The translations under genes and the position numbers were made by a program. DNA of 64,000 bases, from NCBI GenBank assembly GCA_001683735.1, contig LUGG01000003.1, positions 248,001 to 312,000 of the forward strand, in the 5' to 3' direction. Every line of letters starts with the position of its first letter. Positions within the stretch are counted from its first letter, which is position 1. Origin of the DNA: Grifola frondosa (lineage: Eukaryota; Basidiomycota; Agaricomycetes; Polyporales; Grifolaceae). Below, piece after piece: positions 42,986-64,000 of the stretch. The notes under the pieces are model-generated. The model was not told where the DNA came from. It searched no databases and saw only the letters and a program-made list of their open reading frames with translations.

Positions 42986-43251
42986 AAGAGCGACCAGCGG
43001 CAGCGAGGTTGGCGTGAGCTCCACAAGCATGCAAGTCTGGCAGGTGTTTCGTAAGATGTGCCCGACCGAGAAGAGCGACCAGCGGCAGCGAGGTTGGCGT
43101 GAGCTCCACAAGCATGCAAGTCTGGCAGGTGTTTCGTAAGATGTGCCCGACCGAGAAGAGCGACCAGCGGCAGCGAGGTTGGCGTGAGCTCCACAAGCAT
43201 GCAAGTCTGGCAGGTGTTTCGTAAGGTGCGCCCGACCGAGAAGAGCGACCG
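42952..43251. repeat. Minisatellite, 85-bp unit, three and a half copies
   Basis: CTGGCAGGTGTTTCGTAAG starts at 42952, 43037, 43122 and 43207, spacing 85 in each case. The unit continues with GACCGAGAAGAGCGACCAGC and GGTTGGCGTGAGCTCCACAA. Since 85 is not a multiple of 3, the open frames across it (ACLWSSRQPRC... on the minus strand) are repeat artefacts. Confidence 0.9.
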
Positions 43252-43388
43252 GCGACGATCACATTTATGGGGGTTTAATATATATCTTGGTCTTGGTCTG
43301 TTTTAGAAGGAAATAATCTACGAAATTCGCGAGGTATGAATGGCAGGACAACGCGTGGATACATGCATATGTAAATAAAGTGTTCCCG

Positions 43389-44791: not shown

Positions 44792-44974
44792 GAATACTGA
44801 GAGCGAGAGACTGAAGGGCTAATTCTGCGAGGAATCAAGGCATAAGCGCATGATGAAGTCTACCTCATCTTAAAGGTGAAACTTGATCAAGCTCGCGTGA
44901 CCTCAAAGTATCAAATCTACAAGGCTGTCGTAATGGTATTCGCGCTATGCCATTATGGTGTTTCAAGGAACAAT

Positions 44975-45660
44975 GTCGTCGGCGTCCGGGCACGTCATGA
45001 AAGAAAGAAAAAATCATCTTAACAACACACCTCGGTTTGCTTCTAGGACAAGACAGCCAGACGGGCTTACGTTGTGCGTATGTTTGAAGGGCGATTCAGG
45101 GCGGGATGTGACGGCGTTTCTAATCAGTGGTGTCTGAAGAAAATGTACGATGTCGTCGGCATTCGGGCACGTCATGAGAGAATGAAATAATCATCTTGAC
45201 AACGCATTCGGTCTGCTTCTGAGACGAGATAGCCAGACGGGCACACATTGTGCATATGTTCGAAGGGCGACTCAGGGCGGGTGCACGGCGTTTCTAATCA
45301 GTGGTGTCTGAAGAAAATGTACGATGTCGTCGGCATTCGGGCACGTCATGAAAGAATGAAAAAAATCATCTTAACAACACACCTCGGTTTGCTTCTAGGA
45401 CAAGACAGCCAGACGGGCTTACGTTGTGCATATGTTCGAAGGGCGATTCAGGGCGGGATGTGACGGCGTTTCTAATCAGTGGTGTCTGAAGAAAATGTAC
45501 GATGTCGTCGGCATTCGGGCACGTCATGAAAGAATGAAAAAAATCATCTTAACAACACACCTCGGTTTGCTTCTGGGACAAGATAGCCAGACGGGCTTAC
45601 GTTGTGTGTATGTTCGAAGGGCGATTCAGGGCGGGATGGGACGGCGTTTCCAATAACACT
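44975..45660. repeat. Tandem repeat, about 177-bp unit, nearly four copies
   Basis: GTCGTCGGC marks unit starts at 44975, 45152, 45326 and 45504 (spacings 177, 174, 178). Each unit has ACCTCGGTTTGCTTCT, CAGACGGGCTTACGTTGTG and GTTCGAAGGGCGATTCAGGG. It fills the gap between the divergently oriented DUF6698 and Cys-rich genes. Open frames across it are repeat artefacts. Confidence 0.9.
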
Positions 45661-45846
45661 CCACTTGTGTCTCTATGGCATCTGGAGGAATGCAAGATGT
45701 TCGCAGATGAAGTTACAAGCCAACAGAGATGCACCTCCTTTCTCATATAAGAGCACAGGAATCATGAACTTCTACAGATCATTCTCGTCATATTATGATA
45801 ACCTCCCAACACCAAACCCTTCTTCAACGTATCCGCGACGAGCGAC

Positions 45847-46782
45847 ATGAAGTCTTGCAATATGATATTAGGACGAAGGGGCTATGCACCTGGTACTGGT
45901 AAGCATGTCGATCAAGGAATGCTTGACACCGCTGATTTTCCCTCCTACAGGCCCCTGGAGGACGGAGGTCGTCGCGTCACGCCGTCAGCATTACGAGAGC
46001 GTCGCATGACATACAAATTTACTGGACCTTGTTGTCTCTGCCCGAACGCAACTCCAGACGAAGGACATTATACAGAAGCTGCGACACTAATAGCAATCGA
46101 AGGTCCATGTTCGGGAGAATACGTAGCAATGTGTGCAAAGGGAAGCTGTGGGTATTTGGGTAAGCATCTAACTTGCTCTCTCACAACTTGAAACCTCACC
46201 AAGCTCGACCGTTTTACAGTGTACTTGGAGAGGATCTTCGCCGCCTTCTTCGTGAAGTCCAAACAGTATGATCGCAGAGGTGCGTAGTTGTCGCATGAGT
46301 ATTCATCGAACATACGTCGAGACATCTCGACAGAACCTGGTGACTTAAGGCCCGCCACCGTATTTCACTTCTCGGAAGTCGAACTTGACAACGCATTCCG
46401 CCGTCGACAGTCTGGTAAGTTGTCAGACTCAACACTAAATGTTTAACAACTCATTCCATAAGAAGGGACTGAACATTCCGACTCACGCAAACTAAAGCGC
46501 ACGTATGCAATGTTGGGTTAGTTCACACCGTTACTAGTTTTCTGCAAACAATCTGATTCAGTGCTAGATGTAACGGCAGAGGAGATCAAAGTGACACCCG
46601 CTGATCGACCGGTGCCTCGTCCGATTATAATCGACGACGTTCTACGCAAACTCGATAGCCTTCTGGACCCGGGTATTTCAGATGCCCAGTTCGGATTTGT
46701 GATGGCTAGATGTACGTGCGGCCTTATCATGACGCGCCGGGTGTTCCGCTACCACAGGTGCGCTACAGAACCTGCAGAGTGA
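45847..46782 (+). CDS. Cys-rich hypothetical protein
   Basis: Unrecognised but clearly coding, with five short introns. Start MKSCNMILGRRGYAPGTGKH; then PCCLCPNATPDEGHYTEAAT and IEGPCSGEYVAMCAKGSCGY, giving CxxC, C, C-x5-C spacing that suggests metal or disulfide binding; VYLERIFAAFFVKSKQY; VFHFSEVELDNAFRRRQS; EHSDSRKLKRTYAML; and a C-terminus with RPIIIDDVLRKLDSLLDPGI and FVMARCTCGLIMTRR. I recall similar 'EGPCSGxYVAxCA' proteins as multi-copy in agaricomycetes near transposable elements; function unknown. It is oriented away from DUF6698 across the 177-bp repeat and does not carry the shared upstream module. Confidence 0.65.
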
Positions 46783-46817
46783 TAGATCCCAAGAGAATAT
46801 AGCTATACATGATACGC

Positions 46818-46884
46818 GTACATAGAAGGAATGGGAGCAATCTGGAGCGAACGCTTGTCTGGAGACCGGACAGAGCGCGTACAC
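46818..46884 (-). repeat. Isolated motif B block (left direct repeat)
   Basis: GTCTGGAGACCGGAC at 46857-46871, within about 65 bases (GGGAGCAATCTGGAGCGAAC on the left, AGAGCGCGTACAC on the right) that recur almost exactly at 49122-49188. It lies downstream of the Cys-rich gene and of the Ulp1 gene's stop, without motif A. Confidence 0.75.
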
Positions 46885-46999
46885 TACTTATACACTATAC
46901 ATAATACATCTTGGAGATGCTTGCATATAAATGCGATTTTTTGAGTGATAAAAAACAGGCGAATTGCAAGCATGGATGAGTTGGTAACAAACAAGAGTC

Positions 47000-48933
47000 T
47001 TACGGTTTATCCAGACGCGAATTTCGATGCAAATGCTCCCATTCCTCGACAATTGCTAATATCCTATTCTTCATGTGTGTTCGCAGAGAAGGCAGCGCAT
47101 CAACTTGCCAGACTGCATTGGGATCCACCAGGAAGTCTGCATCCATCTCGGCTGTCTACCATCGAAAAATAGTTCTAGTCTCTAATGAAAACTTGTAGTT
47201 GAAGGGACGCACCCATAGAACGCCTATCATTCGCTTGGGATTGGCCATGAAGAGTTGTGCAAAGTGGCAGATGTACAACCCACAGTCATTGGAACCTGCA
47301 GGTTGCTGCGGCACCTGAAAAATACAAATAAAATACAGAACTTCATATTATATTAATATGGAACACTCACTGGTACTTGCACAACAGCAGGGCGGCACGT
47401 TGGTGAAATGTTCTTCTTTGTGTATGCCTCTACACTCAAATAATCTGATAACACTCCTCCCACCTCGACACAATTAGGTCCCCGTCACCGAGCCTATAGA
47501 TACACGAGAGCAGTTCATGGAGTCAAGAATAAAGATGGTCGCGCTAAACTGTCAATTAGTATGCCGATGCAGCACAATTGAAGCAAACCCACGCTGGGGC
47601 GTAGAGGGACGAGCCGGACTGGGTGTCACCGTCACCAGCACGAAGAGTGCTACTACTCTCTGGGGGCGGGCCAAATACAGATCCAGGGTAAGCAATAACT
47701 GCCAAATACCAATGTTTTTCGTTGCTTTATACATGCATATGAGCAATGAATGGGCAAGCTGGTGAAAGACTTACCTATCGTAAACAGGCACGATGAGAAC
47801 TGTTTTACTGAAGATGTCGACACAATTTGTATGTGATGTTACTCGATCATATCCACATTTTGTACTGCCATGAGCTAAGTGCTGAATGAATGAATGACTG
47901 GGAGTTGAACAGACTCACAGTTGCGTGAAGAAGAAAGGACTAAAGACATGAATTTGATCAGCGGTGGTGACATCTCTGGCCTTGAGCTCCTCATAACATA
48001 CTCTGCAGATGCTCGTGAGTGCGTTACGGCCGCACAAATCTAATGGCACTCACCTTAAACCAAATTCAATAATGTTATCATTGAGATAACGACCCGGTTC
48101 CAACATAGCCAGTTCTTCAGTACCGATGCTCACAGCTCCTTTAGAATGGAAGGGATATAGAAAAAGTCTGTGGTCGGCGGGGGTAGGAGTGTCGGTTGGG
48201 ACAGGAAGCGTTCGTAGAGGTAAGGATGAAGACGCAGTTATAGGGCGCCCACCAATGATCCCCGCGTGCGAGGAGCGTAGACGTGTGGAAGGGACAGATA
48301 CATCAGAAATGACGCGTTTGGTGATACGTTTGGTGATACGTTTGCTGCAAATCGTTGCGCTTGAGCAAGCGCTGAGTAGAAATATGAATCGACTTACACC
48401 ACCACGGCGATTGTAGGTTTCACATCTTCTTTGCGTTTCTTACGTGCCGGAGATGCATTCCGATGCCTAAAAGCTTGAGCATGGAGTAATTTGTGGGTAC
48501 AACAAACCGACCTACTTGATTAGTTCTTTCTTTCTTTCCGACTTGGTTAACGATGGATTTCCCCTGCACTTCTCGACCGGAGAAGACCTGAAGAGTGACA
48601 TCAATCTCAGGTTTTGAATGCAACGATTAAATGACCGCGTACTTCGGTATCACAACCTCCGTTGTTCCTTTTGCATCCCCGATCATCGTACCTGCAGCAG
48701 GATGACTGGACACGCATGAATGTCTCAAATGCGCATTCAACGAAGGCGCATGCCGTACCTAGGCATATGTGACAGACTGCATGCGCTTCATATTGTAACA
48801 TCGTGATGTGAAGATTTCAGGGAAGACAAACTAACCTTGACCCAACGATACTCTGTAGTTTCTGTAGGAGTTCGTCAGGTAGACTACTACCCATGATACG
48901 ATCCAATTCGCGGTCTTGAACATCCTTAATCAT
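47000..48933 (-). CDS. Ulp1/SENP-type cysteine protease (C48)
   Basis: Predicted SUMO-deconjugating or SUMO-maturing protease. Start at 48933 (MIKDVQDRELDRIMGSSLPD). N-terminal Cys-rich segment (VCHICLGTACAFVECAF, GCKRNNGGCDTEVRGHL), then VTLQVFSGREVQG, KPTIAVVV and a basic linker. The protease domain begins LEPGRYLNDNIIEFGLR, then VTTADQIHVFSPFFFTQL, VDIFSKTVLIVPVYDR, the catalytic His in HWYLAVIAYP, the Asp candidate in ATIFILDS and the catalytic Cys in PAGSNDCGLYICHFAQLF. About nine short introns; stop at 47000. The triad and flanks are intact. Such genes commonly accompany fungal DNA transposons. Upstream lies the shared motif A/B module (49104-49253). Confidence 0.88.
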
Positions 48934-49103
48934 TGTGACCAGGAGAGAACGATAAACGAGACAGAGAAAGCTGTCAAACGTGTGTGAGAATGCGTACAGC
49001 CACAAAGGGTTGAACGACAATGAGAAATGGATACACGCACGATGGACGCGTACTAAATTTTGAACGTAAACGCAGAGGAACAGGAGAGCGAGGAGACACG
49101 CTT

Positions 49104-49253
49104 GTCTGGTGACCGGACAGTGCGCGTACATAGAATGGGAGCAATCTAGAGCGAACGCTTGTCTGGAGACCGGACAGAGCGCATACACCAGTTGCACCTG
49201 TCCACTTGAAGTGAGCAGATGCAGACGCAATGCTGTCCACTTGGAGTGAGCAG
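49104..49253 (-). promoter_or_regulatory. Shared A-B module upstream of Ulp1 gene
   Basis: Read toward the gene (minus strand): motif A at 49253-49233 and 49218-49198 (core CTCACTTCAAGTGGAC, one base varied in the first), then motif B at 49175-49161 (core GTCCGGTCTCCAGAC) and 49118-49104 (GTCCGGTCACCAGAC). The start codon is 171 bases further at 48933. Order and orientation match four other genes. Confidence 0.8.
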
Positions 49254-50004
49254 TATTCGTGATGGTTAAAAGTTAAAGAAGCCTTCCATCCGCCGGCCTG
49301 AAAGAAGCCTATCCCTTCGGACCCCCAATCGGATAGTGCAAATTATAAACACAGCTGCAGCTTCTCGATGTCCGATTGATTTTGCGCCGGACTCTTCCGG
49401 TGGCGCGATGATAACACGTTCAAGGGGACGGCGAGCAGCAGAGTCAAGACAAGCTGTGAAACAAAGAGGCAAAACGAGATAAGCATAGCGATGACGGGTA
49501 AACGAGATAGGCATAGCGATGACGGAGAAATTAGTTACTTGAATACTGTGGAAGGCGGCTGCTGTCACATGACCTTTTGTTCCAAATGTGTACTACTACC
49601 AGTACCGTCATCGCACTGGAACGGTACTCACAGAGAAGCCTAAAAAAATGTTCAATGAGTAATTAAGAAGAGGTGAATCGGACTCTGGCGGACCCCCCAA
49701 GTGACTTGATGTTCTGAGACGTTAGCGGATAGGAATGCAGTAATCGGAGACGGGAAAAGTGGTTGAGAGACAAATGTCCTCACCGCCGCTCGAACATGCA
49801 GCACACGATAAATGTCGAAATGTGTAGTCACCAACTTGTATTAACCGCGACGCTCGGCCTTGAAAGTATGCAGCCAAAGTTTTCATAAATACATGCAGTT
49901 AAATACAGTATACAGCCGTGACATTGTCCCTACAAAATACACGAACAGGAAACCTCCGGGATTTCGGACTTCATGCGAGTACCACCGACAGAGCTCGCCG
50001 ACCA
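49254..50004. other. Unresolved minus-strand coding-like stretch
   Basis: Minus-strand frames at 49834-49652 (MVTTHFDIYRVLHVRAA then FVSQPLFPSPITAFLSAN) and 49568-49266 (hydrophobic, then basic) look like exons of a small gene upstream of the Ulp1 module, but I cannot join them or name a family. Confidence 0.35.
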
Positions 50005-52569
50005 CTAATGCCTCGTTCTCTTCCGACTGCTGTGACGTGAATCATCACTGGGACGCTTGTTACCAAGCTGGGTGGAGAGATGTGTGGAAGTTGCGGGGGC
50101 TACGGGGTCGGAATAGTTCTTCAGGAATCCGCGTGGCTCCCCGAACGCGTAATGCTCCCCCGTTGCGTCCATCTCGACAATAGCGTTGATAAGAAGTCGA
50201 CGAAATGCCTCATGGACAAAGTCAACGGAGACGCCTTCACAAAGCGCATACTCGGGCCAGACAATACCAAACATCTCCGTGATGAGAGTTGCAATTGGGC
50301 CTTTCCGGAGTCTCGAATGGAGCAAATTTGGAAATTCTGCCTGATCTATCCAGGCTCCTCGTTGATCGTGACACATGCTGGAAATCTCGTGGGAGAGGAA
50401 GTCGCGGAGGTAAGGGTGTACACCATCGTATTCAAGCTCGTCCTTGCCATCTCCCCACATAATGAGGCGGTAAACCAGCAGCCAGAATACGCTTTCCATG
50501 TCGTGGTATTCCCGATGACAGAAAGGGGGAGTTTCTGGACCAGGTGGCACCAGTGTAGGTTTTGGATATTCGACATTTATATCCTTGTAAGCAGCCTTAT
50601 AGAGGCTTGCGGCTTTGTCGCTGACCTTCGGGAGGTCGGGAGGAAGTGTGCCCGGGCCCTGCAGGAGACGCCCAGAAGAGACAGCGCGTGCGATGAACAT
50701 GGGGGTACCCTGAATCTAAACTGAGTACAATTACCATTAAATCAAGCAGATGGACTTACAGTGCGTGAGCTGCGATTTCCCGGTTCCTCCGGTTCAATTG
50801 ATGGGTCTAGCTCCACGGAATTCGCTTTGAGGTTGTCCAGGTACTTAGCGCTGCCTTGCGTGAAAGCAGAATTGTCGAAGTCGGCCAGCAAGCAGAGACA
50901 TTTGTTCGGGTCCTCGCTAAAAGGAAGGAATTAGCACACGTAACGCTCCATTATGAGCAACACTTGCGTTTTATCGAGTACGCGGGAGATATAGACGCCA
51001 CCCTCATGGCTCTGATATGTCTTACGCAATGGTGGTTTGTGAACGTTCCAGAGAACATTGCCCATCGAGATGTCGCGGTGAAGAACGCCGCGCGCACACA
51101 GAAGACGATGAGCTAACAATTGGATCGTATTAGCTTGCAGAAGAGACAGGAGAAGATAAGAATACTCACTCTCAACGAGGTCATACAGCACTTTCAGTAG
51201 CTCATAAATTGTCGGGCAGCTTTCGAGGGTCTCGCCGATACCCTCGACGACGATGCGAAGACGCTTCCATTGTGATTCGCACGTTGTGATAAACCGTTCC
51301 TCGCGATCCTTCACGACTGCATACTCCACCAAAATGGGAACACCCGGCAAGACACTACGGCCATAGTCGTGCGCGATGTTCAGCATGCGATGCTCGAAAT
51401 AGAACCTGGTCCTCGATAGAAAAATATCCTTGCAGGCCAAATTGTGCTTGTAGTCGACGAAAACGTTGACCCGCCTGCTGCGAGTCGGACTTCCCACAAA
51501 AACCGCAGCATGTCATCATAGACTTTTTCACCAACAGTAAGCTTCCATAGCGACAGTCCAGCAAACTGCCGTACTTCACGGGGGATACCTGATGGCAATC
51601 GAGGACGTCGTGCACTATTGGCGTCGCCGGAACCTTGGGGGAGTTCTGACATGAACCCGATAGTACTATCATAATAAGTGTGCGGGCGTGCGGGACGGCG
51701 AACGGTCCACATCAATTGCATGAGAAGATGACCTCCATTAATCAATTCCATTGGCGTCGTAATCCGAGTGCCCTCGGCGTCGCTCCAATACAAACGAAAG
51801 CTCGATGGGGAGAGGCAGAGCCCGAAAACGCCGACACAGTCCGGCCTGCCGATAAGATGGTAGGTCGTATACATTGCCGCCTGCTCCCTCCCGCCGTCCT
51901 TAACGACCATTGGTTTCACCTCGATGGTCATGCAGAGACGGGCCCATGGCACCCCGACGAATTGCTTGCTTTTCTTGCGTTGTTCTTCCGGTCCGTCCTT
52001 CTGCTCGTCCTGCTGTGCGATATTCTTCGTCCGTCTGTAATATTCTATCTCCTCCGCCGAAGCATTCACTGCGACAAGGTCGGGGCGGACTTTAGTTCCG
52101 AGTGCATGTTCGGACGGGGCGCTGTCCGCGTGGATGACGAAGAGGAGAGGTGCATGATTCAATCCTCGGACTTTCATATGTTCTGAGGGCGCATTAGCAT
52201 TGAAATCAATGTAATTTATGCACGGTCACCTTCGACATGTGCAGCACAGGCGTTCAAGAGGTCGCAGATAGGTTGGTACAGTGTTTCCTCCTTGGTAGAT
52301 TTCGGGAGCTCGAGCAAACGTGTGAGTAGTGATTGCACGGACTCCGGAATGGTCTTGATATCGTACTCCGGCGAAAGAAGATTCATAAAGTCAGAAACAT
52401 CTATGTCTGGCAAACGCGCAGAGGCATTCTTGACATGACCAGGTATCCTAATGTTACCCGGGTTGGTAGTTGCCTTTACGGGGCTTGATGGTTCCAAGTA
52501 AGGGAGCACCCGTCTGACAGGAGACCCAGGACGCGGCTCTGTAGAGAATTTGGGGTCCGGGTTCGACAT
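50005..52569 (-). CDS. FunK1-type fungal protein kinase
   Basis: Fungal-specific kinase family, multi-copy in agaricomycetes. Start at 52569 (MSNPDPKFSTEPRPGSPVRR; an upstream Met at 52599 is in frame). N-terminal region: LYQPICDLLNACAAHVEG, HALGTKVRPDLVAVNAS, WARLCMTIEVKPMVVKDGGR with QAAMYTTYHLIGRPD. Kinase part: AGLSLWKLTVGEKVYDD, RRVNVFVDYKHNLACKDIFL, VPILVEYAVVKDREERF, the catalytic loop GVLHRDISMGNVLW, the metal loop LLADFDNSAF (DFD, usual in FunK1), GTPMFIARA, HDMESVFWLLVYRLIMWGDG. C-terminus is basic (GNKRPSDDSRHSSRKRTRH). A frame break near 51500 separates two otherwise good frames. Carries the shared module upstream; substrates unknown. Confidence 0.88.
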
Positions 52570-52681
52570 GTTAACCGTCTGATGTTCAGACGGTGTCACG
52601 GTGTGTGGTGGAGGTGGCGTTGTTCAAAGGATCGGTACTGTGAGCCTCAGCGGATAGGTGGAATAGAGGATAACCTGAGTT

Positions 52682-52785
52682 GTCTGGAGACCGGACAACT
52701 CGGACAGAGGAAGTTTGAATAGAAGGAATCTACCAACTTGAAGTTGGCAGATCCCTGTTGAGCACCGTCCACTTGAAGTGAGCGG
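52682..52785 (-). promoter_or_regulatory. Shared A-C-B module upstream of FunK1 gene
   Basis: Read toward the gene: motif A variant at 52785-52765 (core GCTCACTTCAAGTGGACGG), motif C at 52747-52733 (CCAACTTCAAGTTGG, a palindrome with one central base), motif B at 52696-52682 (GTCCGGTCTCCAGAC). Start codon 113 bases further. Confidence 0.8.
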
Positions 52786-52895
52786 TGACTGGGCACTATC
52801 TGAATCAAGACCGACGTTCAGGATTGAGCCGCGTTAGAAAATCAAGCTTCTTCCCAGATTGTTACCGGCGCACAGCCGGTGGCACGGAAGGTAGT

Positions 52896-52981
52896 ATTTG
52901 TCCAGGCCATATATAGGGTGAGAATATGCACATATCTGGACATATGCTTACCCTTTAAGGCAATATCTGGCCTGGACAAAT
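52896..52981. repeat. Inverted repeat between divergent modules
   Basis: ATTTGTCCAGGCCATATAT at 52896-52914 and its near-exact reverse complement ATATCTGGCCTGGACAAAT at 52963-52981, with a 48-base spacer that itself holds a second copy of ATATCTGGACATATG. It lies between the FunK1 and 53407 genes, roughly midway between their mirror-image modules. Confidence 0.75.
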
Positions 52982-53211
52982 TCCGATTCCCCGGATCATC
53001 AATATGCAAGAAACTCGCTGTGCCACATGACATTGGTACTTTTGCCCATATATGGTATACTCCCATATTCACCTTTTTCCGGGCTGCCCGCCTCCGCCGC
53101 AAGTGTTGCCGAATTTCTTTCACACGTGACCCAGTTACGGTGGCGTGACACATATGAAGCGCTCGATTTTCAGTCGAACACTCTTGCTTTCTTACTACCA
53201 CCAATTCAGTA

Positions 53212-53363
53212 CTGCTCACTTCAAGTGGACAGTACTGAACAGGATCTGCTAACTTCAAGTTGGCAGATTCCGAAGCTTTCTGAACTCTGTCGTCCGGTCT
53301 CCAGACGTCTGAGAATACCCTTGTTTTGTTCCACGCTACAGCACTGCCGTCCGGTCTCCAGAC
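53212..53363 (+). promoter_or_regulatory. Shared A-C-B-B module upstream of the 53407 gene
   Basis: Motif A at 53212-53232 (core CTCACTTCAAGTGGAC), motif C at 53246-53266 (core AACTTCAAGTTGG), motif B at 53292-53306 and 53349-53363 (GTCCGGTCTCCAGAC, both exact). The start codon is 44 bases after the last motif. Mirror image of the FunK1 module. Confidence 0.85.
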
Positions 53364-53406
53364 GAGCGTGCTGTTATCCCCTACCTGCCTACCTGCTGCC
53401 TGCCCT

Positions 53407-56016
53407 ATGGCGGAAGACGTGACTGGACCCAAGCCCCTAGGCGGCCTGGTGGAATTCATGCGTGCATGTCGAAGACCAATGAAGGACGAGGAAATCACAC
53501 CTCGGGACTGCTTGCGTCTCAGCCGCTTCCCCGGCACAAACGACAAACTATGGATTTCCACGCCAAACATGACGTGGATCCCTGAACCTCCGATACATCT
53601 CGACAAGGAATTCCGGTATCACGATGACGGTATGCTCCATGCCTTCGAGTATGCCAAATGGCCGCAAGCGTACTGCGATTCCGAGCCCCATATCATCGCC
53701 GCGCCGCTATGCCCAACCCTGGCTCAGTTCGGAATCAGCGATCGCTTCCGTATGGGACCAGCGTTTCCCGTGATGGATGACGAGCACGTATTGCCGGATT
53801 TCGAGGACGTCAATATTGCATGGATGGACTTCAATCCCATGCATCATTTCCGTATTGCCGAGGAGCTGCCCAATGAGGCTGTGGGATCTCTGTCCCCATC
53901 ACTTCTTCAGCGTTTTCGTGCGACAATGATAGAAGCCAAGACGATGGCAGGGAGAGGGTTTGCAGACGACTTCAGAAAGTTGGGAGATGATGGTATGTGT
54001 ACGGTGTTCATGCTCCTCTGTAGATGTGCTAATTCCTTTTCTTAGTTCATGACATGCGGACGGCCAAGAAGGTGGCCGGCATGTTCAGGTTCCAAAAACA
54101 ACGGTGCGACGACTTGAAAATGGTATTCGACCATTTGAAGGAAGTGCCGATGTCAAGTTTCGACACCTTGTTGTGGTTCCGCGAATTTCAGCGCGTCTTG
54201 CTGGACTTGCGCGCTTTCATCATATATCGCGAAGTGATCGTGCCGCGTCTGAACGACGTCAATTTCAAGCAGCCACAGCCTGTACTGCCACTGAGAGGTG
54301 TAATTACCTCTCATCTCCATCTAGTGTCCGAGATGTATCGTGTCGGCGTACCGGTCTGGTATGTTCGCGACAGGGTTTCAATCACGGAGCGCACCCTCAT
54401 TGTCCGAGTGGAGACATTGCTGTTAGCAGGCGTTTGTTTTTCATCTGCTATCACGATGAAACACGGGCAGCATTTGGCAAACGCTCCGCTCTGGGTTGAT
54501 GCTCCCATGGCGCAAGTGATTCGTGGATCTCTTCAAGAGAGGCTGCGAAGGTTCTCCCTGACGAGCCGTCCCATACTCCGTCCTCTCGAAACATACTCTG
54601 CGGGGCGCGTTGGCGATTTCGAAAAGCAGCAACATCGTTCCTCACCGCAGATCGCTGGTCCTGACCATCCTCGCCAGGAGCTCGTTGATTTGACAGCAGA
54701 TGATGTTCTGCCAGCATCTGACAATGACCATGTCATCATGGTGACTACGCAAGCCACCGAGCAGTATGGTACGGATATCAGCAGCTGATAATCATCCGTT
54801 CGCGCATTAATTTTGTTTTATAGGCAGCAGCGTTACAGATGTCGGCGGAGTTGCAGTCGGTGCAGACATTGAAGACAATGTCAGTGCGGAAAAGCAGACA
54901 AAAGATGCAGCCATGCGCGGTCCCTCGATGAGTGTTGGGATGCCGTCTGCCTACATGGCACGTAAATCTTTGCAAACGCGGACCGCCCATAAGAAGGGCA
55001 AATCGACCAATCATAGGATCGTACCACCTTCATGGGTCCCTCCCTATGCACCTGGGTGGGCGAACGTCCTGAAGTCATGCGAAGGTCTCACCGATGACGA
55101 CCACGTGGGCCTTGTTTATGCGCTGCCTCCCATCCATATTTTCTTCAGTGCCGAAAGCCCCCTCACAGAGCAGCGTGCCCATAATTGGCTTCGCGTCAGA
55201 ATCTTCTGCTTCCAGCAGATTCTCAGCCCTCCGGCCCACAGGATGGTGCTCATGACAACGCAGCAGTGGAGAATCGCGCTCGAGGGCAAATATTTTGCTA
55301 TAGAATACGAGCATAGTCATGTAGAGCCGGAGTCGGCCAAGGAACATATTATCCGTCTGCCCCCACCGCCACCACAGGAGAAAAGGCCGCGACAAGAAGG
55401 GAAGATGGAGGCGGGACAGATCATGAAGAACGCCAATGCAAAGAGGGTGGCTGATCGCGTCGACATCAATGTCCGGTTCGGTATTCATGGGGGCTTTCCG
55501 CCGTATAGCGCAGACTGTGCTCCTGCATGGGGCGACGTCAACATCACGCGCCAAATGCTCTCTGCGGATCGCACCGTTTTCGTCGGCATTGTGTGGGAGC
55601 TGGCTTTATTCAACTTCCGTCTGGAGTTGATCTTCCTCGATCGCCAACTCGTCCCATATTTCTATAATCACTCGGACCAGAGGCTTGCCCTTCGACGAGA
55701 GCGTGTTATCTACGAGATCTGGAACAGCGGAGGAGTCCGGCCCATGTGGACAGACGACCTCAAGTGCGATCGTCTCACTTCGGTGTTATGGGATGAGCGG
55801 CGCGAAGCGGTCAAGCAGATGGCCATAGTGATGAAGGATTGGCCAGATGGTCAACATCTGCTGTGGACCGATCAGTGTTCCTCGGATTTCGACGCATACT
55901 CGAAGTTCGAAACCGAGGTCTTCACGTTCTACGTAGAAGCCTTTCATGGTCGTTTCGGTCGCATTCCGCATGTGCCCCTCGAGCAGCCGTTGTCCTTGGG
56001 CCAGTTTCGCAAGTGA
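53407..56016 (+). CDS. Unnamed-family protein 1 (GVPVWYV family)
   Basis: Three exons (53407-53992, 54046-54768, 54824-56016) join without a frame break to about 833 residues. No known domain recognised. Visible blocks: LWISTPNMTWIPEPPIHLDK, AFEYAKWPQAYCDSEPHIIA, a middle region FREFQRVLLDLRAFIIYREV, LPLRGVITSHLHLVSEMYRV with GVPVWYVRDRVSITE, a linker with QELVDLTADDV near residue 408 that looks like a SUMO-interacting motif, then RIVPPSWVPPYAPGWANV, PPYSADCAPAWGDVNIT and LALRRERVIYEIWNSGGVRP. The LRAF...GVPVWY core is shared with the gene at 61964. I recall many agaricomycete proteins with a 'G(V/I)PVW' block but no function. Carries the shared module and faces FunK1 head to head. Confidence 0.75.
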
Positions 56017-56273
56017 TTCGCGGACCGTCTTATGATTGATGTCTTTCTCGCGCTCTCCTCGGTAGCTTTTCCCTCCAAAGAACTTGTCGCACGGAGGGTT
56101 TTTGACGCACCCGTAGGAGAATTTATCTTGTAGCATGTACGTCTGCAATGAATCCTTCCAGTTGCGTGCCATCGAGTTAAGTAGACGCTCAATTATTTGG
56201 TAATATTTGTATCTCTGCGTCTAATGCTGACTTTTTTTCAACCTTTCACTCGCACGTTTACGGTATACGTATA

Positions 56274-56456
56274 CTGCTCATTTTCAAGTGGACAGGTACA
56301 GACCTCTGCTCACTTCAAGTGGACAGAAGTTACTCGTCGCTACACGCACCGTCCGCTTCCAGACGAGTGTGCTCTGAGTCTTCGATCACGCGTTTTACCC
56401 GCACCAGCGGAGGATATCTTTGTTTTCTCATCTCACATGCCGTCTGGTTTCCAGGC
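56274..56456 (+). promoter_or_regulatory. Shared A-A-B-B module upstream of transposase
   Basis: Motif A at 56274-56295 (one extra T) and 56306-56326 (exact core), motif B variants at 56351-56364 (GTCCGCTTCCAGAC) and 56442-56456 (GTCTGGTTTCCAGGC). Start codon 181 bases further at 56638. Confidence 0.75.
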
Positions 56457-56637
56457 GCATTCTAGTGTCGCGTTTCGCTCCTACTAGTTCACATTAGAGG
56501 ACGACATCATTTCCTCACGCGCTCTGTGGTTTCTGGAAGAGCGTGTTCCGAGTCTCCTCACCCTCATCAAGAGTGATATACGGTCGGTTGAACTTTGTTG
56601 TTATTGAATCCATCTACTCACATATTGTGGAACTTAG

Positions 56638-59600
56638 ATGGAGCTGTCTACCACCTACACGGAGTCTTGCATATGTGGGAGAAGCTTTATGACCCCAGGG
56701 TCGTTCACCAAGCATAGTCGAGTTTGCCCTAAGCGCAAGAAAAGATCTGCGGGTGCCCTCGCTAGAGTGCAGGAGCTTTGGGCTTCGAAACGACAACGAC
56801 AGGATGACTCCATGCCCCCTGAAGCTCAAGGCGTGAAGACCAAGACGCACACCTTTGGCCCTCTCTCGTCTCCACTTGACGCTGCCAGAGTCTTCGACTC
56901 AGCATCAACTACCCTATATGATTTGGATCGCTCGGTGGCAGAGCGTAGGACCCGCAGAGAAAATCGTATGCTTCCCAAGCGGTATCGAGACATAATCCCG
57001 GCACCTGCTGCAGCACTACCTCCATCGTCGTCGCTACCTCCATCATCGTCGCTACCTCCGTCACTTCCATTACCTCAAGATTCAACACAAAATACTGCTC
57101 CATCAGTTGGGACTCGCCTTCTACATGTCTTCAAGTCTCCTCGGAACGTGTTCGGGTTATTTCGACGATATCAATCAAATAACTTCCCCCAGCATGATCC
57201 TGAAGAGAATGTGGACCGGGAGGAGCTAATGACTGCATCCGACGAGGTTTTAAGCTCGTCTGAGATCGATGAACAACCATACTACCCATACCCAAATCAG
57301 TCATCGTTTACTTTACATAACTGGTTTTGGAATGATGGGGTGGTGAAGTCTCAATCGTCCTTTCGAAAGTTGACAAAAATCATCAGTCACCCCGAGTTCA
57401 AACCGGAAGACATCGCAAGGACTAACTGGCAGCGCATCGATGCTCGTTTGGCAGACGTTGAGCAAGATGCCAACATTTCCCAACGACACGAAGGGAGACA
57501 GTATAGTGACAAGTGGACAGAGACCCCAATCACAATATCTGTTCCTTTTCATGCCAAGATGCACCGCCCAGGGCCTCAGGATTTCGGTGCAGGAATACTT
57601 CATCACCGAAAGCTAGTTTCGGTGATCCGCGAAAAGGTCTCGAACCCTGAAAGCCATCCCCACTTTCATTACGAGCCTTATGAACTACATTGGCAGCCGG
57701 AGGGAGCTTTGGAAGATGTTAGAGTATTCGGAGAAATGTATACATCACAGGCGTTCGTCAATGCGCACCGGATCTTCAGCTAGCTCCTGGAGAACCTGGA
57801 TGTGACCTTCCGAGGGTTGTCGTTGCACTCATGTTTGCGTCTGATGCTACCCATCTAACGGATTTCGGCTCCGCTAAACTCTGGCCTCTGTACCTTTCGT
57901 TTGGAAACGAATCGAAGTATAGACGAGGCAACCCGTCTTGTAATCACTTTGAACATGTCGCCTACTTTGAATCTGTGAGGAATCCTGAAAATCCTGCAGT
58001 TCATAACTGACTTAATGCGTTAGCTACCTGATACATTCAAGGACTTCGTGATGGAAAGTGTCGGGGGAAAGGGTCCGAACACCGCTTTCACCACACATTG
58101 TCACCGAGAAATGCTTCATGCACAGTGGACCATCCTTCTTGATGATGACTTTCTGGAGGCGTATGAGCACGGTATTATCATCGAATGTTGTGACGGCGTG
58201 CGACGTCGGTTTTACCCGCGTATTTTCACATATTCCGCAGATTATCCTGAAAAGTATGTAAAGCCCATTGTTCCTTTCTTGAGGATTCGCTGATAAGTTC
58301 TTCAGGATCACCATAGCAAGCATCAGAAATCTCGGTCGTTGTCCATGTCCGCGGTGCCTAATTCCACTCAATCGCGTGCACAACATGGGCATGACTCGAG
58401 ATATGGCCCAGCGTGTAACACTTGCTCGCACCAACGACGCTCGACGTCGGGATCGTGTCGCGACAGCTCGTAAATTCATTTACGAGATGAATTATGCGGT
58501 CAACAGTGCGGCAGTTGAGAAGTTGCTGCAGGAAGAGTCGCTTGTACCCACTGCAGTGAGTGTGATTCGTGTTACATATTCCCGTTGAGCTTGAACATAT
58601 CGTATTCTTAGAACGCTTTTTCGGAAAGGTTGTCGTCACCAAATTTCAACTTGTTTGGGATGCTCGTTGTAGACCTTATGCACGAGTTCGAGTTAGGCGT
58701 CTGGAAGGCGCTCTTCATTCATCTTCTTCGGATACTTGATTGTCTGGATGAATCCCGTAAACACGAACTGGACCGCCGGCAAGTTGACTTATTCCGACAT
58801 ATTGAACGATGAAGCCCATGCTTTGATCATAGATTTCGTCAAATCCCTGCATTTGGCAAAGATACCATCAGGAAAATTCATTCCAATAGATCGGAGTTGA
58901 AGAAAATGGCTGCGCGGGATTATGAAGACTTGCTGCAGGTGAATTTTTAATTTGGGCTACTGGGTGAATCGCTTCAATGTGGATTCTAGTGTGCAATACC
59001 CGTCTTTGAAGGTCTCTTCCCCGAACCACATAACACTCGAGTGAAAGATTTGTTATATATCATGGCCCACTGGCACGGTTTTGCAAAGTTGCGCATGCAT
59101 ACGGACACAACATTGGATATCCTATCTGAGGATACCGCTGTCTTAGGCCAGAAACTTCGTGAATTCAAGGAGAAGACCTGCGCCGCGTTTCAAACACGGG
59201 AGTTAGCTCGCGAGGGTGAAGCTCGAAAGAGGCGTCAGCAGAAAAATGTTGCAGGCGCTGGTCCTAATTCCGCAGCACCGGGCGATGCGCGTCGACCTAA
59301 AGCTTTCAATCTCAATACCTACAAACTTCACTCCTTGGGTGACTATGTGTCAACCATCCGACTCTTTGGGACTACAGATTCTTACTCGACTCAACTGGTG
59401 GGCTCTTTCTACTTTGTGGAATGCGTTCGCTAATGTACTTTGCCTAGCCTGAAACCGAACACCGAAAGTCGAAATCTCGCTTCCTTCGTACGAAGGTAGA
59501 TTGATTCGGAAACAGTTGACCAAGATCGAAACACGGCAGTGCAATATACGTAAAATGCGTGAAAAACTTAGTCCGCAGGAAGCTCTCCATCCTCCGGACA

Positions 59601-60793
59601 TGGAGGACGTCCCAAGCGATCCACGGATGCAGTACAACATGGGTAAATCGGAGAATTCTCCGGTGAATGTCCCATCCTTCCTTCAGAAACATGCTGGCGA
59701 TCCAGCAATCAAGGTAGGCCATTTCTGGATTGTTCGTTGAGTGTGCTGACGCGTTCCGTAGGACTTCTTGCCAAAGCTGAAAGATCACCTTCTTCCTCGC
59801 ATACAGGAGATCATCTCGCAAGAAGCCACCTTCGGCTCTAACTCGACTAGCGTTCCAGGACCTGTGGTCGGTTACGAACATCCACGGGATTCTGTCTTCT
59901 TGAAGAATGATCGCATCTATCATCACAGTCTCATCCGATTCAACTACACTACCTATGACATCAGACGCGACCACAGTGTTGTCAATGCCGGTACCGAGCA
60001 ATGCAATATCATGCTTCTCGCCGACAGTTCTGATCCCGCCGGCTCCGGTCGTTTCTTGTATGCCCGTGTGTTGGGGACATACCATGCAAAAGTCGTTTAT
60101 ATGGGATCTGGAATGCGCGACTACGAACCTCGTCGTATGGACTTTTTATGGGTGCGATGGTACGAAGTCTTGGATGGAAGCAGCTCTCAACTTCCTTCCC
60201 TTCGATTTCCTTCCATGTGCGATGCGTATTCATTTGGATTCGTCAATCCGAGCGATGTGCTACGTAGCTGCCACGTTATTCCTGATTTCGCGGGTGGCAA
60301 GCGCCATGATGATGGTATTGGTACTTCCTGCTGCGCCAAGGATGCCCAGGACTGGTGTCGCTACTACGTGGGCTGGTATGTGTTCGGATATTATTTACTA
60401 GAAATGATTTGACTTGTTCAATCCTTGCAGTTTTTCTGATCGCGACCTTTTGATGCGCCATCACTGGGGATTAGGTGTGGGTCACATCTATGCTCACGGA
60501 GCTGGAATCAAGGTAAACCGTGGTGCCGTGGTGGAAAATGCAATTGATGCACGGTTGGCTATTCTATCCGCGGAGAGAACGGAAGGTGTGCAATGTTCCT
60601 TTCACTGCCTTCGTAGTTCTAACTTAGTGTAGTTGTAGATGATATATCGGACAACCATGAAGAAACTTACAACCCAGATGATGATCCGGAACTAAGTATG
60701 GAAGATCGAGAGAGAGAGGGCTGGGAAGACGTCGAATCAGACGATGAGGCTGAGTATGAGGACGACGTCTCCTCTGGGGAACATGATGAATGA
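56638..60793 (+). CDS. Plavaka-like DNA transposase
   Basis: Long multi-exon transposase common in agaricomycetes. N-terminus has a C2H2-like finger (CICGRSFMTPGSFTKHSRVC). Then PYPNQSSFTLHNWFWNDGVV, PISVPFHAK-type block, YEPYELHWQPEG, VVVALMFASDATHLTDFG, AKLWPLYLSFGNESKYRRG, a Cys knuckle GRCPCPRCLIPLNRVHNMGM, the core MLVVDLMHEFELGVWKALFI (acidic residues of the probable RNase H-like site), AIPVFEGLFPEPHNTRVKDL, AHWHGFAKLRMHTDTTLDIL, LHSLGDYVSTIRLFGTTDSY, YTTYDIRRD, FLWVRWYEVLDG, CHVIPDFAGGKRHDDGIG and an acidic tail. About ten introns. Frame breaks near 57775 and 59493 interrupt conserved stretches. No convincing terminal inverted repeats were found, so element ends are unknown. Plavaka assignment is from memory of the family; a KDZ-type element is the alternative. 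Confidence 0.75.
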
Positions 60794-61486
60794 GAGGCTG
60801 GCTCCGACCATTCGCGCATGTCTTCTCATCATCACGTTCACCCCGTCCTTGTTCCATACTTATTCGTGTCCTCTTACATCCATGTTCTAAGCATCTGTCG
60901 CATTCACGTACGCAAACTCTTCACTTTACTACTGATTCGAGTTGCATATGAATCAAATGGGCATATCTTGCACCATATACTGCACTACCCCTCCTCAAGT
61001 ACTCGAAGTTGGTGTGACTGTTTAAGAACCCAAGGCGAAGAGGGATGAAGAAGAGAGCGGACCGTATATGACAGACTCTGTCCGCTCGGAGCGGCATAAC
61101 GAACTAATTTGGACAGCAGCGCGTTCACTTGTGAGTAGTTGGCGCTGCTCCGCCCGCCCAATCCGATTCCGTCTCTGTCCACAGTTCAGACATCACGCAG
61201 CCACCCGTTCGTTGGATTTAATTTATGTTTAATTTAAGTCATTATCATAGCCCAGCCTCAAACAACCATACTCGAAGTTAATGACTGTACTCCATGGGCC
61301 GTTACATACTTACCCCAGGACGTCGGTAGGAAGGAGTGGTGAGAGGTAGTTGTCCTGTCTTTGTTCGCAGAATCTCTGGATTGGCATATGTATGTTCAAT
61401 TACTTTCCTCCAACCTCGACATCTGCGGTGATAGCCGTTAATTAAGGCAATCTGTCCACATAAGTCGATGGGTCACGTTCACCCAT
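60794..61486. other. 3' flank of transposase
   Basis: No gene seen. Contains CACTACCCCTCCTC at about 60983, which could recall a CACTA-type end, but no matching inverted copy was found upstream of the transposase. Confidence 0.35.
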
Positions 61487-61555
61487 GTGACCTCGGAGGT
61501 GTTCGACTCCTTGAATTCACTCTTGCCTGATGAACTAGTACTAGCATTACGGTGC
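61487..61555 (+). other. Short coding-like stub ending at a module
   Basis: Reads TSEVFDSLNSLLPDELVLALR up to the first motif A copy. LLPDEL recalls SSLPDELLQKLQ at the N-terminus of the Ulp1 protein (48933). It may be a relic first exon cut by the following module; weak evidence. Confidence 0.3.
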
Positions 61556-61563
61556 TCCAGTCG

Positions 61564-61763
61564 CTGCTCACTTCAAGTGGACAGCCATCATTGCTATTGC
61601 TCACTACAAGTGGACAATTGCATCTTGCGTCGTCCGGTTTCCAGACGCGCATTTACTCGATTTCAGACAGACCCCTCGAATTGCCCGCGTCGTCCGGTCT
61701 CCAGACGCGCATTTACTCGATTTCAGACCTTTCGAATTGTCTGCGTCGTCCGGTTTTCCAGAC
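61564..61763 (+). promoter_or_regulatory. Shared A-A-B-B-B module upstream of the 61964 gene
   Basis: Motif A at 61564-61584 (exact core) and about 61598-61618 (CTCACTACAAGTGGAC), motif B at 61632-61646, 61692-61706 and 61748-61763. The first two B copies sit in a 60-base tandem repeat (CGCGCATTTACTCGATTTCA). The start codon is about 200 bases further, after a probable 5' UTR intron. Confidence 0.8.
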
Positions 61764-61963
61764 AGGCGCGTCAATTACTCGACTTTGGACCTTCATCCGG
61801 CCTTCAGACACCTGCTCGATTTACCTTCGAATTCCTCGCGTTGTCCGGTGCTTGCTTGTGCACGATATCCGACCCTCACCCTTTTTCCATCGTCACCTAC
61901 ATTTCAGTGTAAGTGATAGCTTCCGTCTGTACCACTACTATATGCTTACCCGCTGGTATAGCT

Positions 61964-63573
61964 ATGATGCATACTTGTCATACTCTCCTGTACGATCCAA
62001 AAACCTGCCTAGCGGGATCTTCCCGAGGCCCATCGACACCCTGGGACCAATTCCACGACCACAAGGTCATCCGCACCTATGCAATACTCGACAATAATCG
62101 AGTCGCAATATCTCCCAATGCTGACTACATTCCGGCGGAGCCACCTTCTGGGAACCCACCAAAAAGGCCATATGCGGATGGTCGCCGATACACATTCGAA
62201 TTCGCGTTTCAGCCGCAGCAATGGTGTGCCGAGCTGGAGTACATTTCTTGTAGTTATCAGTTGTCAGAGGCCAGTGGTATTATAGACCCAGCCTTCACAT
62301 TGCTGGAGGATGGGCAAACGTTCAAGACGACAAACTGGCACAGCCGTCAAGGCCGAGTTCTTCAGACGTTCTACGAGCCGTTATTTGAGCTGTTCCAGTC
62401 GGAATGGACTGCTGCGACAGCCATTCAGAGCAATGCGTTGCCCCATGTCGTGCGTTCGTGGTCGGAGATAAACACTGCCGAGGAACGCCGCTGCGTCAAA
62501 GACGAACGTCTTACGCTGCAAAAGCAGCGCACGAAAGTCGCTGAGATTCAGCGTCACATCCTAAAGCTGCGAGCATTTACTCAATGGTGCACGCTCATGA
62601 AAGCTTTCCGCGACGGGATTATAATACGTCCAGTCCCTACCTTGTCTGTCGTTGGCACTTGGACAGCCGCGAACGATGAAGTCACCAGGAAGCGACTTGT
62701 GTGGCTAGGTATACCGTGTTGGTATATCGCCTCTTTACCGAAGTCGCCGATTCCAACGTCGCCAAGTGAAATTCGATCAGTTGACTCTCGTCTCACTGGT
62801 TGGGAATGGGATGACGATATGGACCATCCTAAGCCTGAGACGGCGAAGGCGAAGAAGAGGTGTATGGAATCGGACGATGAGGGCTGGAGTGAGGAAGAAA
62901 TGACGGCCATCCCCCTGCGACATACACGCTTCCTGGTGTCCTTCCGGAACGGAAATATCTTAAGCTGAAGAAAAAGGGTGCTACGATCCTTCCCTCTGAG
63001 GTTCCGGTGAAGTTCAGACCTGGTTTGACTCCCAGACCTTCTCCTGGTTGGCAACCGCCACAAGGCGGATATCGCTCTCATTCTCCCAAACCTCGCGCTC
63101 CTCAGCCCCATTCATGGAGCAACAACTATCAACGTCGCTCTCGTTCTCCCGAGCCTCGCGCTCCTCAGCCCCATTCACGGGGCAACAACTATCAACGTCG
63201 CTCTCGCTCTCCCGAGCCTCGCGCTCCTCAGCCCAATTCATGGGGCAACAACTATCGACGTCGCTCTCGTTCTCCCGAGCCTCGCGCTCCTCAGCCCAAT
63301 TCATGGGGCAACAACTATCGACGTTGCTCTCGTTCTCCCGAGCCTCGCGCTCCTCAGCCCAATTCATGGGGCAACAACTATCGACGTCGCTCTCGCTCTC
63401 CCGTTCGCCGCTGGGGTTATTCATCCGCTAGAACACAATGCGAATCTCCAGATCGGTACGACCCTATGGGTGCTGATGTCGGGTGTCGGGCAGGACATGA
63501 TGGCGGCCAGTCTTCCTGCAGTCTGCGAGATGCCAGTGAGTACATCCCATACCAAGGTCAGTGTGCCCGCTAA
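61964..63573 (+). CDS. Unnamed-family protein 2 with RS-type repeat tail, probably incomplete
   Basis: Start at 61964 (MMHTCHTLLYDPKTCLAGSS) after a likely 5' UTR intron (GTAAGT at 61910, TATAG before the start). Blocks: FQPQQWCAELEYISCSYQLS, VLQTFYEPLFELFQSEWTA, VAEIQRHILKLRAFTQWCTL, VGTWTAANDEVTRKRLVWLG with IPCWYI, then an acidic linker (MESDDEGWSEEEM). The ILKLRAF ... LGIPCWYI core resembles VLLDLRAF ... VGVPVWYV of the 53407 gene. A frame break near 62940 leads into YLKLKKKGATILPSEVPVKF and a tail of five 21-residue repeats (RSRSPEPRAPQPNSWGNNYR-type). The frame after 63420 is uncertain and the gene may extend beyond the window through the 127-base repeats. Confidence 0.65.
63073..63399 (+). 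repeat. 63-bp coding tandem repeat, five copies plus a partial
   Basis: Units begin at 63073, 63136, 63199, 63262, 63325 and (partial) 63388, spacing exactly 63. Each encodes RS(R)SPEPRAPQP(N/H)S(W)GNNY(R/Q)R, 21 residues, so the frame is preserved across all units. The Arg-Ser dipeptides resemble SR-protein tails. Confidence 0.9.
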
Positions 63574-63624
63574 CGAAGAAGTAGGCGACATAGGATCAAT
63601 ACATGCCACTGCCGAGCCCGTCAG

Positions 63625-64000
63625 CCTTGAAGGGCTCGAGATCGCTCTCGCCGATATCGGACACTAGCTTCATCCTCCTCTGCAGGAGCAACAAGCTCAT
63701 ATGGACGTTGATGGCAGAGATGCACTAATGACGGACAAGGTACCCCCGCCGTCAATCCCGTTAGCCTTGAAGAGCTCGAGGTCGCTCCGCCGAGCTTCAT
63801 CCTCCCCCGCAGGAGAAACAAGCTCATATGGACGTTGATGGCAGAGATGCACTGATGACGGACAAGGTACCCCCGCCGTCAATCCCGTCAGCCTTGAAGA
63901 GCTCGAGGTCGCTCCCGCCGAGCTTCATCCTCCCCCGCAGGAGAAACAAGCTCATATGGACGTTGATGGCAGAGATGCACTGATGACGGACAAGGTACCC
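63625..64000 (+). repeat. Tandem repeat, 127-140 bp unit, running off the window
   Basis: CCTTGAAG starts at 63625, 63765 and 63892. The later units are nearly identical (GCAGGAGAAACAAGCTCATA, GACGTTGATGGCAGAGATGC, ACGGACAAGGTACCC). Translated, a unit reads SLEELEVAPAELHPPPQEKQ and AHMDVDGRDALMTDKVPPP, so it is probably coding sequence of the upstream gene. Confidence 0.8.

What the first reader, a model, noticed from the sequence alone, without database searches (positions are those of the whole stretch)
49104..61763. Five unrelated genes share one upstream motif module
Motif A (core CTCACTTCAAGTGGAC), sometimes motif C (AACTTCAAGTTGG) and motif B (GTCCGGTCTCCAGAC, an inverted repeat with a 3-base centre) lie before a Ulp1 protease, a FunK1 kinase, two unnamed-family genes and a Plavaka-like transposase. 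In every case the order is A, (C), B, then ATG, in the direction of transcription, on either strand, within about 45-400 bases of the start. I noticed no copies in the first 46 kb. The genes are not homologous, so a shared module points to common regulation (a transposon-linked regulon) or to capture by one mobile element. This arrangement is not one I know from published work.
Basis: seen in the sequence. Interest (0 to 1): 0.88.

Follow-up and report, generated by a model that had tools for sequence, protein, structure and literature searches.

The report
Shared hairpin leader in mushroom transposon
A 25-kb jumping gene of the maitake mushroom carries the same set of small hairpin-forming sequences in front of five of its genes, apparently as the untranslated start of each message, which suggests that the element controls its genes together through RNA structure.

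Summary
All 36 exact A motifs and all 39 exact B motifs in the 39-Mb genome (Grifola frondosa by protein hits) lie in copies of one 25,458-bp transposon, window 42397 to 67854. It is PlavakaB-type: ends CATCAGA...TCTGATG, 2-bp target duplications in 5 of 5 copies checked.

Two results go further. Stem arms differ between sites yet still pair. From the first hairpin to the start codon the sense strand is poor in ATG (3 seen, 13.5 expected; antisense normal), and decayed copies gain ATGs. So the cassette is most likely a transcribed 5' leader with conserved hairpins. Sister elements lack it where I could compare.

Coordinated post-transcriptional control is inferred, not shown. Against it: antisense leaders fold better in 4 of 5; two of seven recognised genes lack the cassette; one extra B lies behind Ulp1. 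No transcript data.

The parts
42397..64000 (.). Window part of the 25,458-bp PlavakaB-type transposon (goes on to L009:3854, i.e. window-numbered 67854)
   Evidence: ends CATCAGA...TCTGATG, 2-bp TSD, main blocks of four other copies 99.6-99.8% identical to the window copy
43392..44791 (-). DUF6698 gene of the element, without cassette
   Evidence: PF20414 E 1.7e-16 on one exon piece; 8 ATG in the 400 nt upstream
45802..46779 (+). Gene of unknown family conserved in sister elements, without cassette (extent approximate)
   Evidence: tblastn of two pieces to L031, L033, L034
46857..46871 (-). Extra B hairpin, behind the Ulp1 stop, in Ulp1 sense; part of a 75-nt duplicate (89%) of the Ulp1 leader
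47002..48933 (-). Ulp1-type protease gene (limits by my reading; the second uATG in its leader is in frame with it)
   Evidence: PF02902 on one exon, E 2.1e-4, 21.6 bits against a cut-off of 20.7; sequence and frames
49089..49265 (-). Ulp1 leader cassette: hairpin centres A1 49243, A2 49208, B1 49168, B2 49111
50005..52569 (-). FunK1-type kinase gene; its frame near residue 240 of piece 51380-52225 differs from that of other copies
   Evidence: PF17667 E 1.1e-6 on piece 50931-51512; frames compared
52574..52797 (-). FunK1 leader cassette: A1 52775, C 52740, B1 52689, diverged B2 52584
53200..53380 (+). G4 leader cassette: A1 53222, C 53256, B1 53299, B2 53356
53407..56016 (+). G4, gene of unnamed family; protein search with its last exon piece finds 3 proteins, all Grifola; DNA relatives at many places of this genome
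56260..56474 (+). Transposase leader cassette: A1 56282 (one inserted base, poor dyad), A2 56316, B1 56357 (one base missing against the copies K2-K5 and L002), B2 56449
56638..60629 (+). Plavaka transposase gene (end approximate)
   Evidence: annotated copy P0002 hits PF18759 E 3.3e-14
61552..61810 (+). G6 leader cassette: A1 61574, A2 61607, B1 61639, B2 61699, weaker B-like repeats to about 61810
61942..64000 (+). G6, gene of unnamed family with a 21-aa arginine/serine-rich tandem repeat (63072-63403); start 61942 or 61965; runs past the window end

Best explanation
The five modules are paralogous copies of one leader cassette. It spread by duplication inside a single lineage of PlavakaB transposon, where it now forms the 5' untranslated leader of five of the element's seven recognised genes. 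Each leader carries two A-type and one or more B-type stem-loops. The most likely mechanism is coordinated post-transcriptional control: the hairpins slow or gate ribosome scanning, or are bound by one protein of the element or the host, so that transposase, Ulp1 protease, FunK1 kinase and the two other proteins are made together and at a limited level. Shown by computation: the element, its copies, the homology of the cassettes, the pairing of variable arms, the ATG depletion. Inferred: transcription start near the first hairpin, action as RNA. Conjecture: the binding protein; G6, with its arginine/serine-rich repeat, is a candidate by sequence only.
For: Element and copies. All ten pairs of the five upstream regions align, best alignment of each 64-80% over 54-175 nt, same order of sites. 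A/C arms: pairs at positions 11-13 from the centre 22 of 30, against 8.4 +- 2.5 when arms are swapped between 10 sites, 0 of 20000 permutations; of five position ranges tried, four gave 0 of 20000 and the innermost (8-10) p 0.023. In 9 sites (transposase A1 left out) 7 of 13 pairs change on both sides, 20 cells against 7.4, covariation score 0.472 against 0.185, 0 of 500 shuffles; slid partners reach at most 0.139. On the five two-hairpin stretches 0.342 against 0.178, 0 of 500. B arms around one fixed core: summed fold energy of 9 sites -116.5 against -84.3 +- 7.2, 0 of 20000; 7 sites without near-duplicates p 0.00015. ATG: 3 in 1496 nt of leader against 13.5 expected, 0 of 2000 shuffles; reverse complement CAT 26 against 27.5; 300 nt upstream of the first hairpin 30 against 29.7. 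Outside the hairpins 2 against 12.1, 0 of 3000, with CAT, GTA, TGA, AGT and TAC not depleted. Decayed copies gain upstream ATGs: C6 transposase 6 against 1, C6 G4 2 against 0, C6 G6 at least 2 against 0, C13 G4 1 against 0. The B behind Ulp1 lies in the same sense as the Ulp1 message.
Against: The antisense strand of the leader folds more stably in 4 of 5 leaders, and the B core has a conserved C-A mismatch in sense that is a G-U pair in antisense. Of 20 hairpins folded alone, 9 have z above -2; in the full leaders 12 of 19 cores pair with probability 0.85 or more, none of the 4 in Ulp1 and not the first hairpin of FunK1 or transposase. The cassettes are related and the structure was drawn from these sites, so the controls overstate the case: FunK1 and G4 share part of their C arms. 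Palindrome repair by template switching could also keep arms matched without selection. The only double change I noticed between orthologous copies (FunK1 A1, window against C13) is also what decay of two CpG sites would give; in C6 the transposase A2 arms pair better than in the window and the G4 A1 arms less well. ATG gain in decayed copies is not universal (C13 FunK1, 154 nt, none), C-to-T decay favours it, and two better copies (C36, C1:835k) also gained one in the Ulp1 leader. If G6 starts at 61965 its leader holds one more ATG unless spliced out. Two of seven genes lack the cassette. No transcript or expression data.
Confidence: 0.58

Rival explanations
1. DNA-level regulon: A/C and B are palindromic binding sites for a dimeric transcription factor or the transposase, in a promoter cassette shared by the genes.
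For: Near-symmetric conserved cores, two A-type sites at 33-35 nt in five of five genes and B sites 57-60 nt apart in three of five; the other strand folds better in 4 of 5 leaders, as a double-stranded dyad would not mind.
Against: Outer arms vary in sequence but still pair, which binding by a sequence-reading protein does not ask for; the asymmetric cores keep one orientation relative to the gene; sense-only ATG depletion starts at about the first hairpin. No A or exact B hit near the ends of the element, where transposases of related CACTA elements bind (recalled).
Confidence: 0.25
2. No function of the module itself: it is a mini-repeat that happened to be duplicated with promoters, and matched arms reflect hairpin-templated mutation.
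For: Cassettes are paralogous; B units multiply in tandem before G6; one B block lies behind a gene.
Against: Placement before five genes in the same sense in six near-complete copies; sense-strand ATG depletion that decayed copies tend to lose.
Confidence: 0.12
3. Chance or composition artefact.
For: None found.
Against: Exact 16-base A 36 times in the genome, all in one element family; reversed, shuffled and permuted controls.
Confidence: 0.01

Closest known systems
PlavakaB DNA transposons of Agaricomycotina (Kojima 2025, PMC12730594; outline with abstract, section 3.2.2 and found passages seen)
   Same: Plavaka transposase, ends CATCA..TGATG, 2-3 bp TSD, extra genes carried
   Different: What I saw of it describes captured TET/JBP genes and termini; a shared leader cassette is not mentioned there
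MuDR of maize (PMC8224964, found passages seen)
   Same: Homologous upstream sequence serves two non-homologous genes of one DNA transposon
   Different: There the shared sequence is the 200-bp terminal inverted repeat used as promoter; here it is internal, before five genes, and looks like a structured leader
Upstream conserved sequence of yeast cytoplasmic linear elements pGKL (PMC6211774, found passages seen)
   Same: One conserved element before each gene of a mobile element
   Different: A 6-bp promoter motif (ATNTGA) usually 20-40 nt before the start codon; no stem-loops in the passages seen
Starship giant transposons (search listing only)
   Same: Large fungal element with cargo genes
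   Different: Tyrosine-recombinase elements of Pezizomycotina; no shared leader seen in the listing

Membership tests
PlavakaB transposon | Plavaka transposase (PF18759) | tested here: met
   P0002, 100% identical to the window ORF over 48% of it, hits PF18759 E 3.3e-14
PlavakaB transposon | Ends 5'-CATCA..TGATG-3' | tested here: met
   CATCAGA...TCTGATG in 5 of 5 copies compared; definition from PMC12730594
PlavakaB transposon | 2 or 3 bp target site duplication | tested here: met
   CC/CC, AC/AC, CC/CC, TG/TG, CC/CC in 5 of 5
PlavakaB transposon | Catalytic residues of the transposase intact, and place in the PlavakaB clade of a tree | not tested
   no spliced protein or tree made
MuDR-like shared terminal promoter | Shared sequence lies in the terminal inverted repeats | tested here: not met
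   terminal repeat match is 7 bp; the nearest B is 4.4 kb from the left end and the G6 cassette 6 kb from the right end
Known structured RNA family (Rfam) | Match to a covariance model | tested here: not met
   0 matches with E up to 1 in 42300-64000
mRNA leader element | Lies in the transcribed 5' untranslated region | tested here: inconclusive
   ATG depletion supports it; no transcript data
Structured RNA | Compensatory changes that keep pairing | tested here: met
   the sites are paralogous, so the shuffles overstate independence, and the same pairing could serve at DNA level

The most novel reading that the evidence does not exclude
A transposon has built its own RNA regulon: a hairpin leader cassette that was copied in front of gene after gene of the element, the recruited FunK1 kinase included, so that all are controlled through one RNA-binding activity, perhaps encoded by the element (G6).
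Probability: 0.3. Interest if true: 0.85.

Novelty: new variant of a known kind. Interest (0 to 1): 0.68.

Why it matters
It would show how a multi-gene DNA transposon keeps unrelated genes under one control when it takes in a new one. It also offers a test system: five natural leaders with the same hairpins, near-identical copies in one genome, and sister elements that have G4 and transposase without the cassette.

Tried and rejected
Head-to-head A-like pair CTCACTTCAAGGGTAC at C2:3271055/3271611 and C31:13486/14042 looked like a related module; the C2 copy reads to me as an inverted-repeat element and has no blastn match to the window, so it was dropped; the C31 copy was not fetched. Capture of the whole module from a host gene: no copy found outside the element. 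Sister elements with a diverged cassette: no ACTTSAAGT core in L031-L034, no palindrome over the threshold there, only short matches (13-24 nt, E 0.08 or worse) between the upstream regions of G4 and transposase there and the window cassettes and none between those two, best model hit 9.1 bits, E 4.6. L037 and L038, from more distant elements, have no A within 6 of 21 mismatches and one B with 3 mismatches. The upstream regions of Ulp1 (in full) and G6 in the sister elements were not held. Transposase binding sites: no A or exact B near the ends. Copies in viral contigs: none exact. Strand test by G-U against A-C pairs in the arms: 6 against 2, too few. Palindrome scan: the element has 8 palindromes over the threshold against 1, 0, 0 in shuffles; 4 of the 8 are cassette hairpins (52574, 52724, 53205, 53244), 4 are not. 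Paper searches listed no report of such a leader in a Plavaka or other DNA transposon; one search found no paper at all. 11 papers mention Plavaka, 10 were listed, and I saw passages of two of them (PMC12730594, PMC9674265).
Full report
What it sits in. The window is C3:248001-312000 of a 39-Mb genome. Top protein hits name Grifola frondosa, with contig lengths equal to C1 and C3. The motifs lie in a transposon of 25,458 bp, window 42397 to 67854 in window-plus-L009 numbering, with ends CATCAGA...TCTGATG (7-bp match) and 2-bp target duplications CC, AC, CC, TG, CC in 5 of 5 copies examined. The main blocks of the four other copies are 99.6-99.8% identical to the window copy. These features and the Plavaka transposase hit (PF18759) fit the PlavakaB lineage as defined in PMC12730594 section 3.2.2. 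From the motif hits there are six near-complete copies (the sixth at C1:835-861 kb with about 11.6 kb extra inside, seen through its motif places and five 3-kb loci only), one copy with the middle missing (C36), one decayed copy (C6, 92-96% in long blocks) and one decayed fragment (C13, about 88%).

Where the motifs are. 36 of 36 exact A and 39 of 39 exact B matches in the genome lie in those copies. A search with the G4 cassette as DNA gives 27 matches, all in those copies.

The cassette. The upstream regions of Ulp1, FunK1, G4, transposase and G6 align to each other, all ten pairs, over 54-175 nt at 64-80% identity. In the order Ulp1, FunK1, G4, transposase, G6 the two A-type sites are 35, 35, 34, 34, 33 nt apart, a B follows after 40, 51, 43, 41, 32 nt and a second B after 57, 105, 57, 92, 60 nt. 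The 105-nt case is a diverged B just before the FunK1 start, with a core change on both sides (52574-52594). The first transposase A has an inserted base and a poor dyad. The first hairpin lies 185 to 368 nt before the start codon.

Pairing arms. Around the conserved core the arms differ from site to site but pair with each other. Swapping right arms between 10 A/C sites lowers pairs at positions 11-13 from 22 of 30 to 8.4 +- 2.5, none of 20000 permutations reaching the observed value; of five ranges tried, four gave that result and positions 8-10 gave p 0.023. On 9 sites (transposase A1 left out) 7 of 13 pairs change on both sides and the covariation score is 0.472 against 0.185 in shuffles and at most 0.139 with slid partners. 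For B, 9 sites were used (transposase B1, FunK1 B2 and the weak G6 repeats left out): -116.5 against -84.3 +- 7.2 kcal/mol, 0 of 20000; without two near-duplicates p 0.00015. The sites are paralogs and the structure was drawn from them, so these numbers overstate the case.

Transcribed leader. From the first hairpin to the start codon the five sense strands hold 3 ATG in 1496 nt; dinucleotide shuffles give 13.5 and none of 2000 is as low. The antisense count is normal (26 against 27.5), and the 300 nt upstream are normal (30 against 29.7). Outside the hairpins it is 2 against 12.1 (0 of 3000), and after the last hairpin 0 against 6.0 (p 0.0007, four genes). DUF6698, without cassette, has 8 ATG in the 400 nt upstream. 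Copies that decay by C-to-T and G-to-A gain upstream ATGs (C6 transposase 6 against 1, C6 G4 2 against 0, C6 G6 at least 2 against 0, C13 G4 1 against 0; C13 FunK1, a 154-nt part, none); C36 and C1:835k each gained one in the Ulp1 leader; the other copies kept the window's counts. Two of the three ATGs are in the Ulp1 leader; by my reading the first opens a 12-codon frame over B1, and the second is in frame with Ulp1. If G6 starts at 61965 there is one more, unless removed by a possible intron.

Folding. Of 20 single hairpins 11 have z -2.78 or lower and 9 are above -2. Full leaders: z -5.9 (FunK1), -5.6 (G4), -2.2 (Ulp1), -2.2 (G6), -1.4 (transposase); the antisense is more stable in 4 of 5; 12 of 19 hairpin cores pair with probability 0.85 or more in the full sense leader. 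This speaks against a simple optimum of sense RNA folding, and the B core with its C-A mismatch may be read in another way.

Origin. Sister elements with 51-55% identical transposase (C40, C2, C3:88x) share DUF6698, the 45.8-kb gene, G4 and transposase, and in C40 and C2 also Ulp1, with the left block inverted; G6 relatives at 33-35% lie beside them. They have no A-type core in the stretches held, and the upstream regions of G4 and transposase there resemble neither each other nor the cassettes beyond short matches. FunK1 of this type is found in the window-type element only: 14 of 16 matches are in its copies, the other 2 are at C3:710-722 kb with 30-32% identity; the FunK1 family as a whole has 134 matches in this genome, though the same profile also rings in 4 of 14 control genomes. 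So the cassette was most simply gained in this lineage and spread to five genes, the recruited kinase among them; loss in the sister lineage is not excluded.

Mechanism. Best supported: structured leader acting after transcription (0.58). Rival: promoter palindromes (0.25). See the separate fields. Nothing here measures expression.

Noticed in passing
window 50005-52569: FunK1: the window copy and the C5 copy read piece 51380-52225 as one 281-aa frame, whereas the copy at C1:2303318 changes frame near residue 240 and has an open frame of 431 aa there; the window frame is probably the shifted one.
   Followed up: partly
window 42482-43254, 44973-45654, 63072-64000, L009:1-315 and 3386-3715: Tandem repeats of 252, 85, 178, 63, 127-140 and 119 bp inside the element, some near both ends; the 178-bp array lies between the DUF6698 gene and the 45.8-kb gene.
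   Followed up: no
L035-L036 (C6:938001-952500), L028 (C13:257001-267000): Decayed copies differ in the leaders mainly by C-to-T and G-to-A changes, as repeat-induced mutation or methylcytosine decay would give.
   Followed up: partly
window 63072-63403: G6 carries a 21-aa arginine/serine-rich tandem repeat (RRRSRSPEPRAPQPNSWGNNY type).
   Followed up: no
L029 (C2:3271001-3276000): Apparent inverted-repeat element whose ends contain CTCACTTCAAGGGTAC, 556 bp apart; a pair with the same spacing at C31:13486/14042; no match to the window element.
   Followed up: partly
C1:1024282-1028833, C3:805158-807191: Insertions of about 4.5 kb and 2 kb inside two of the copies.
   Followed up: no
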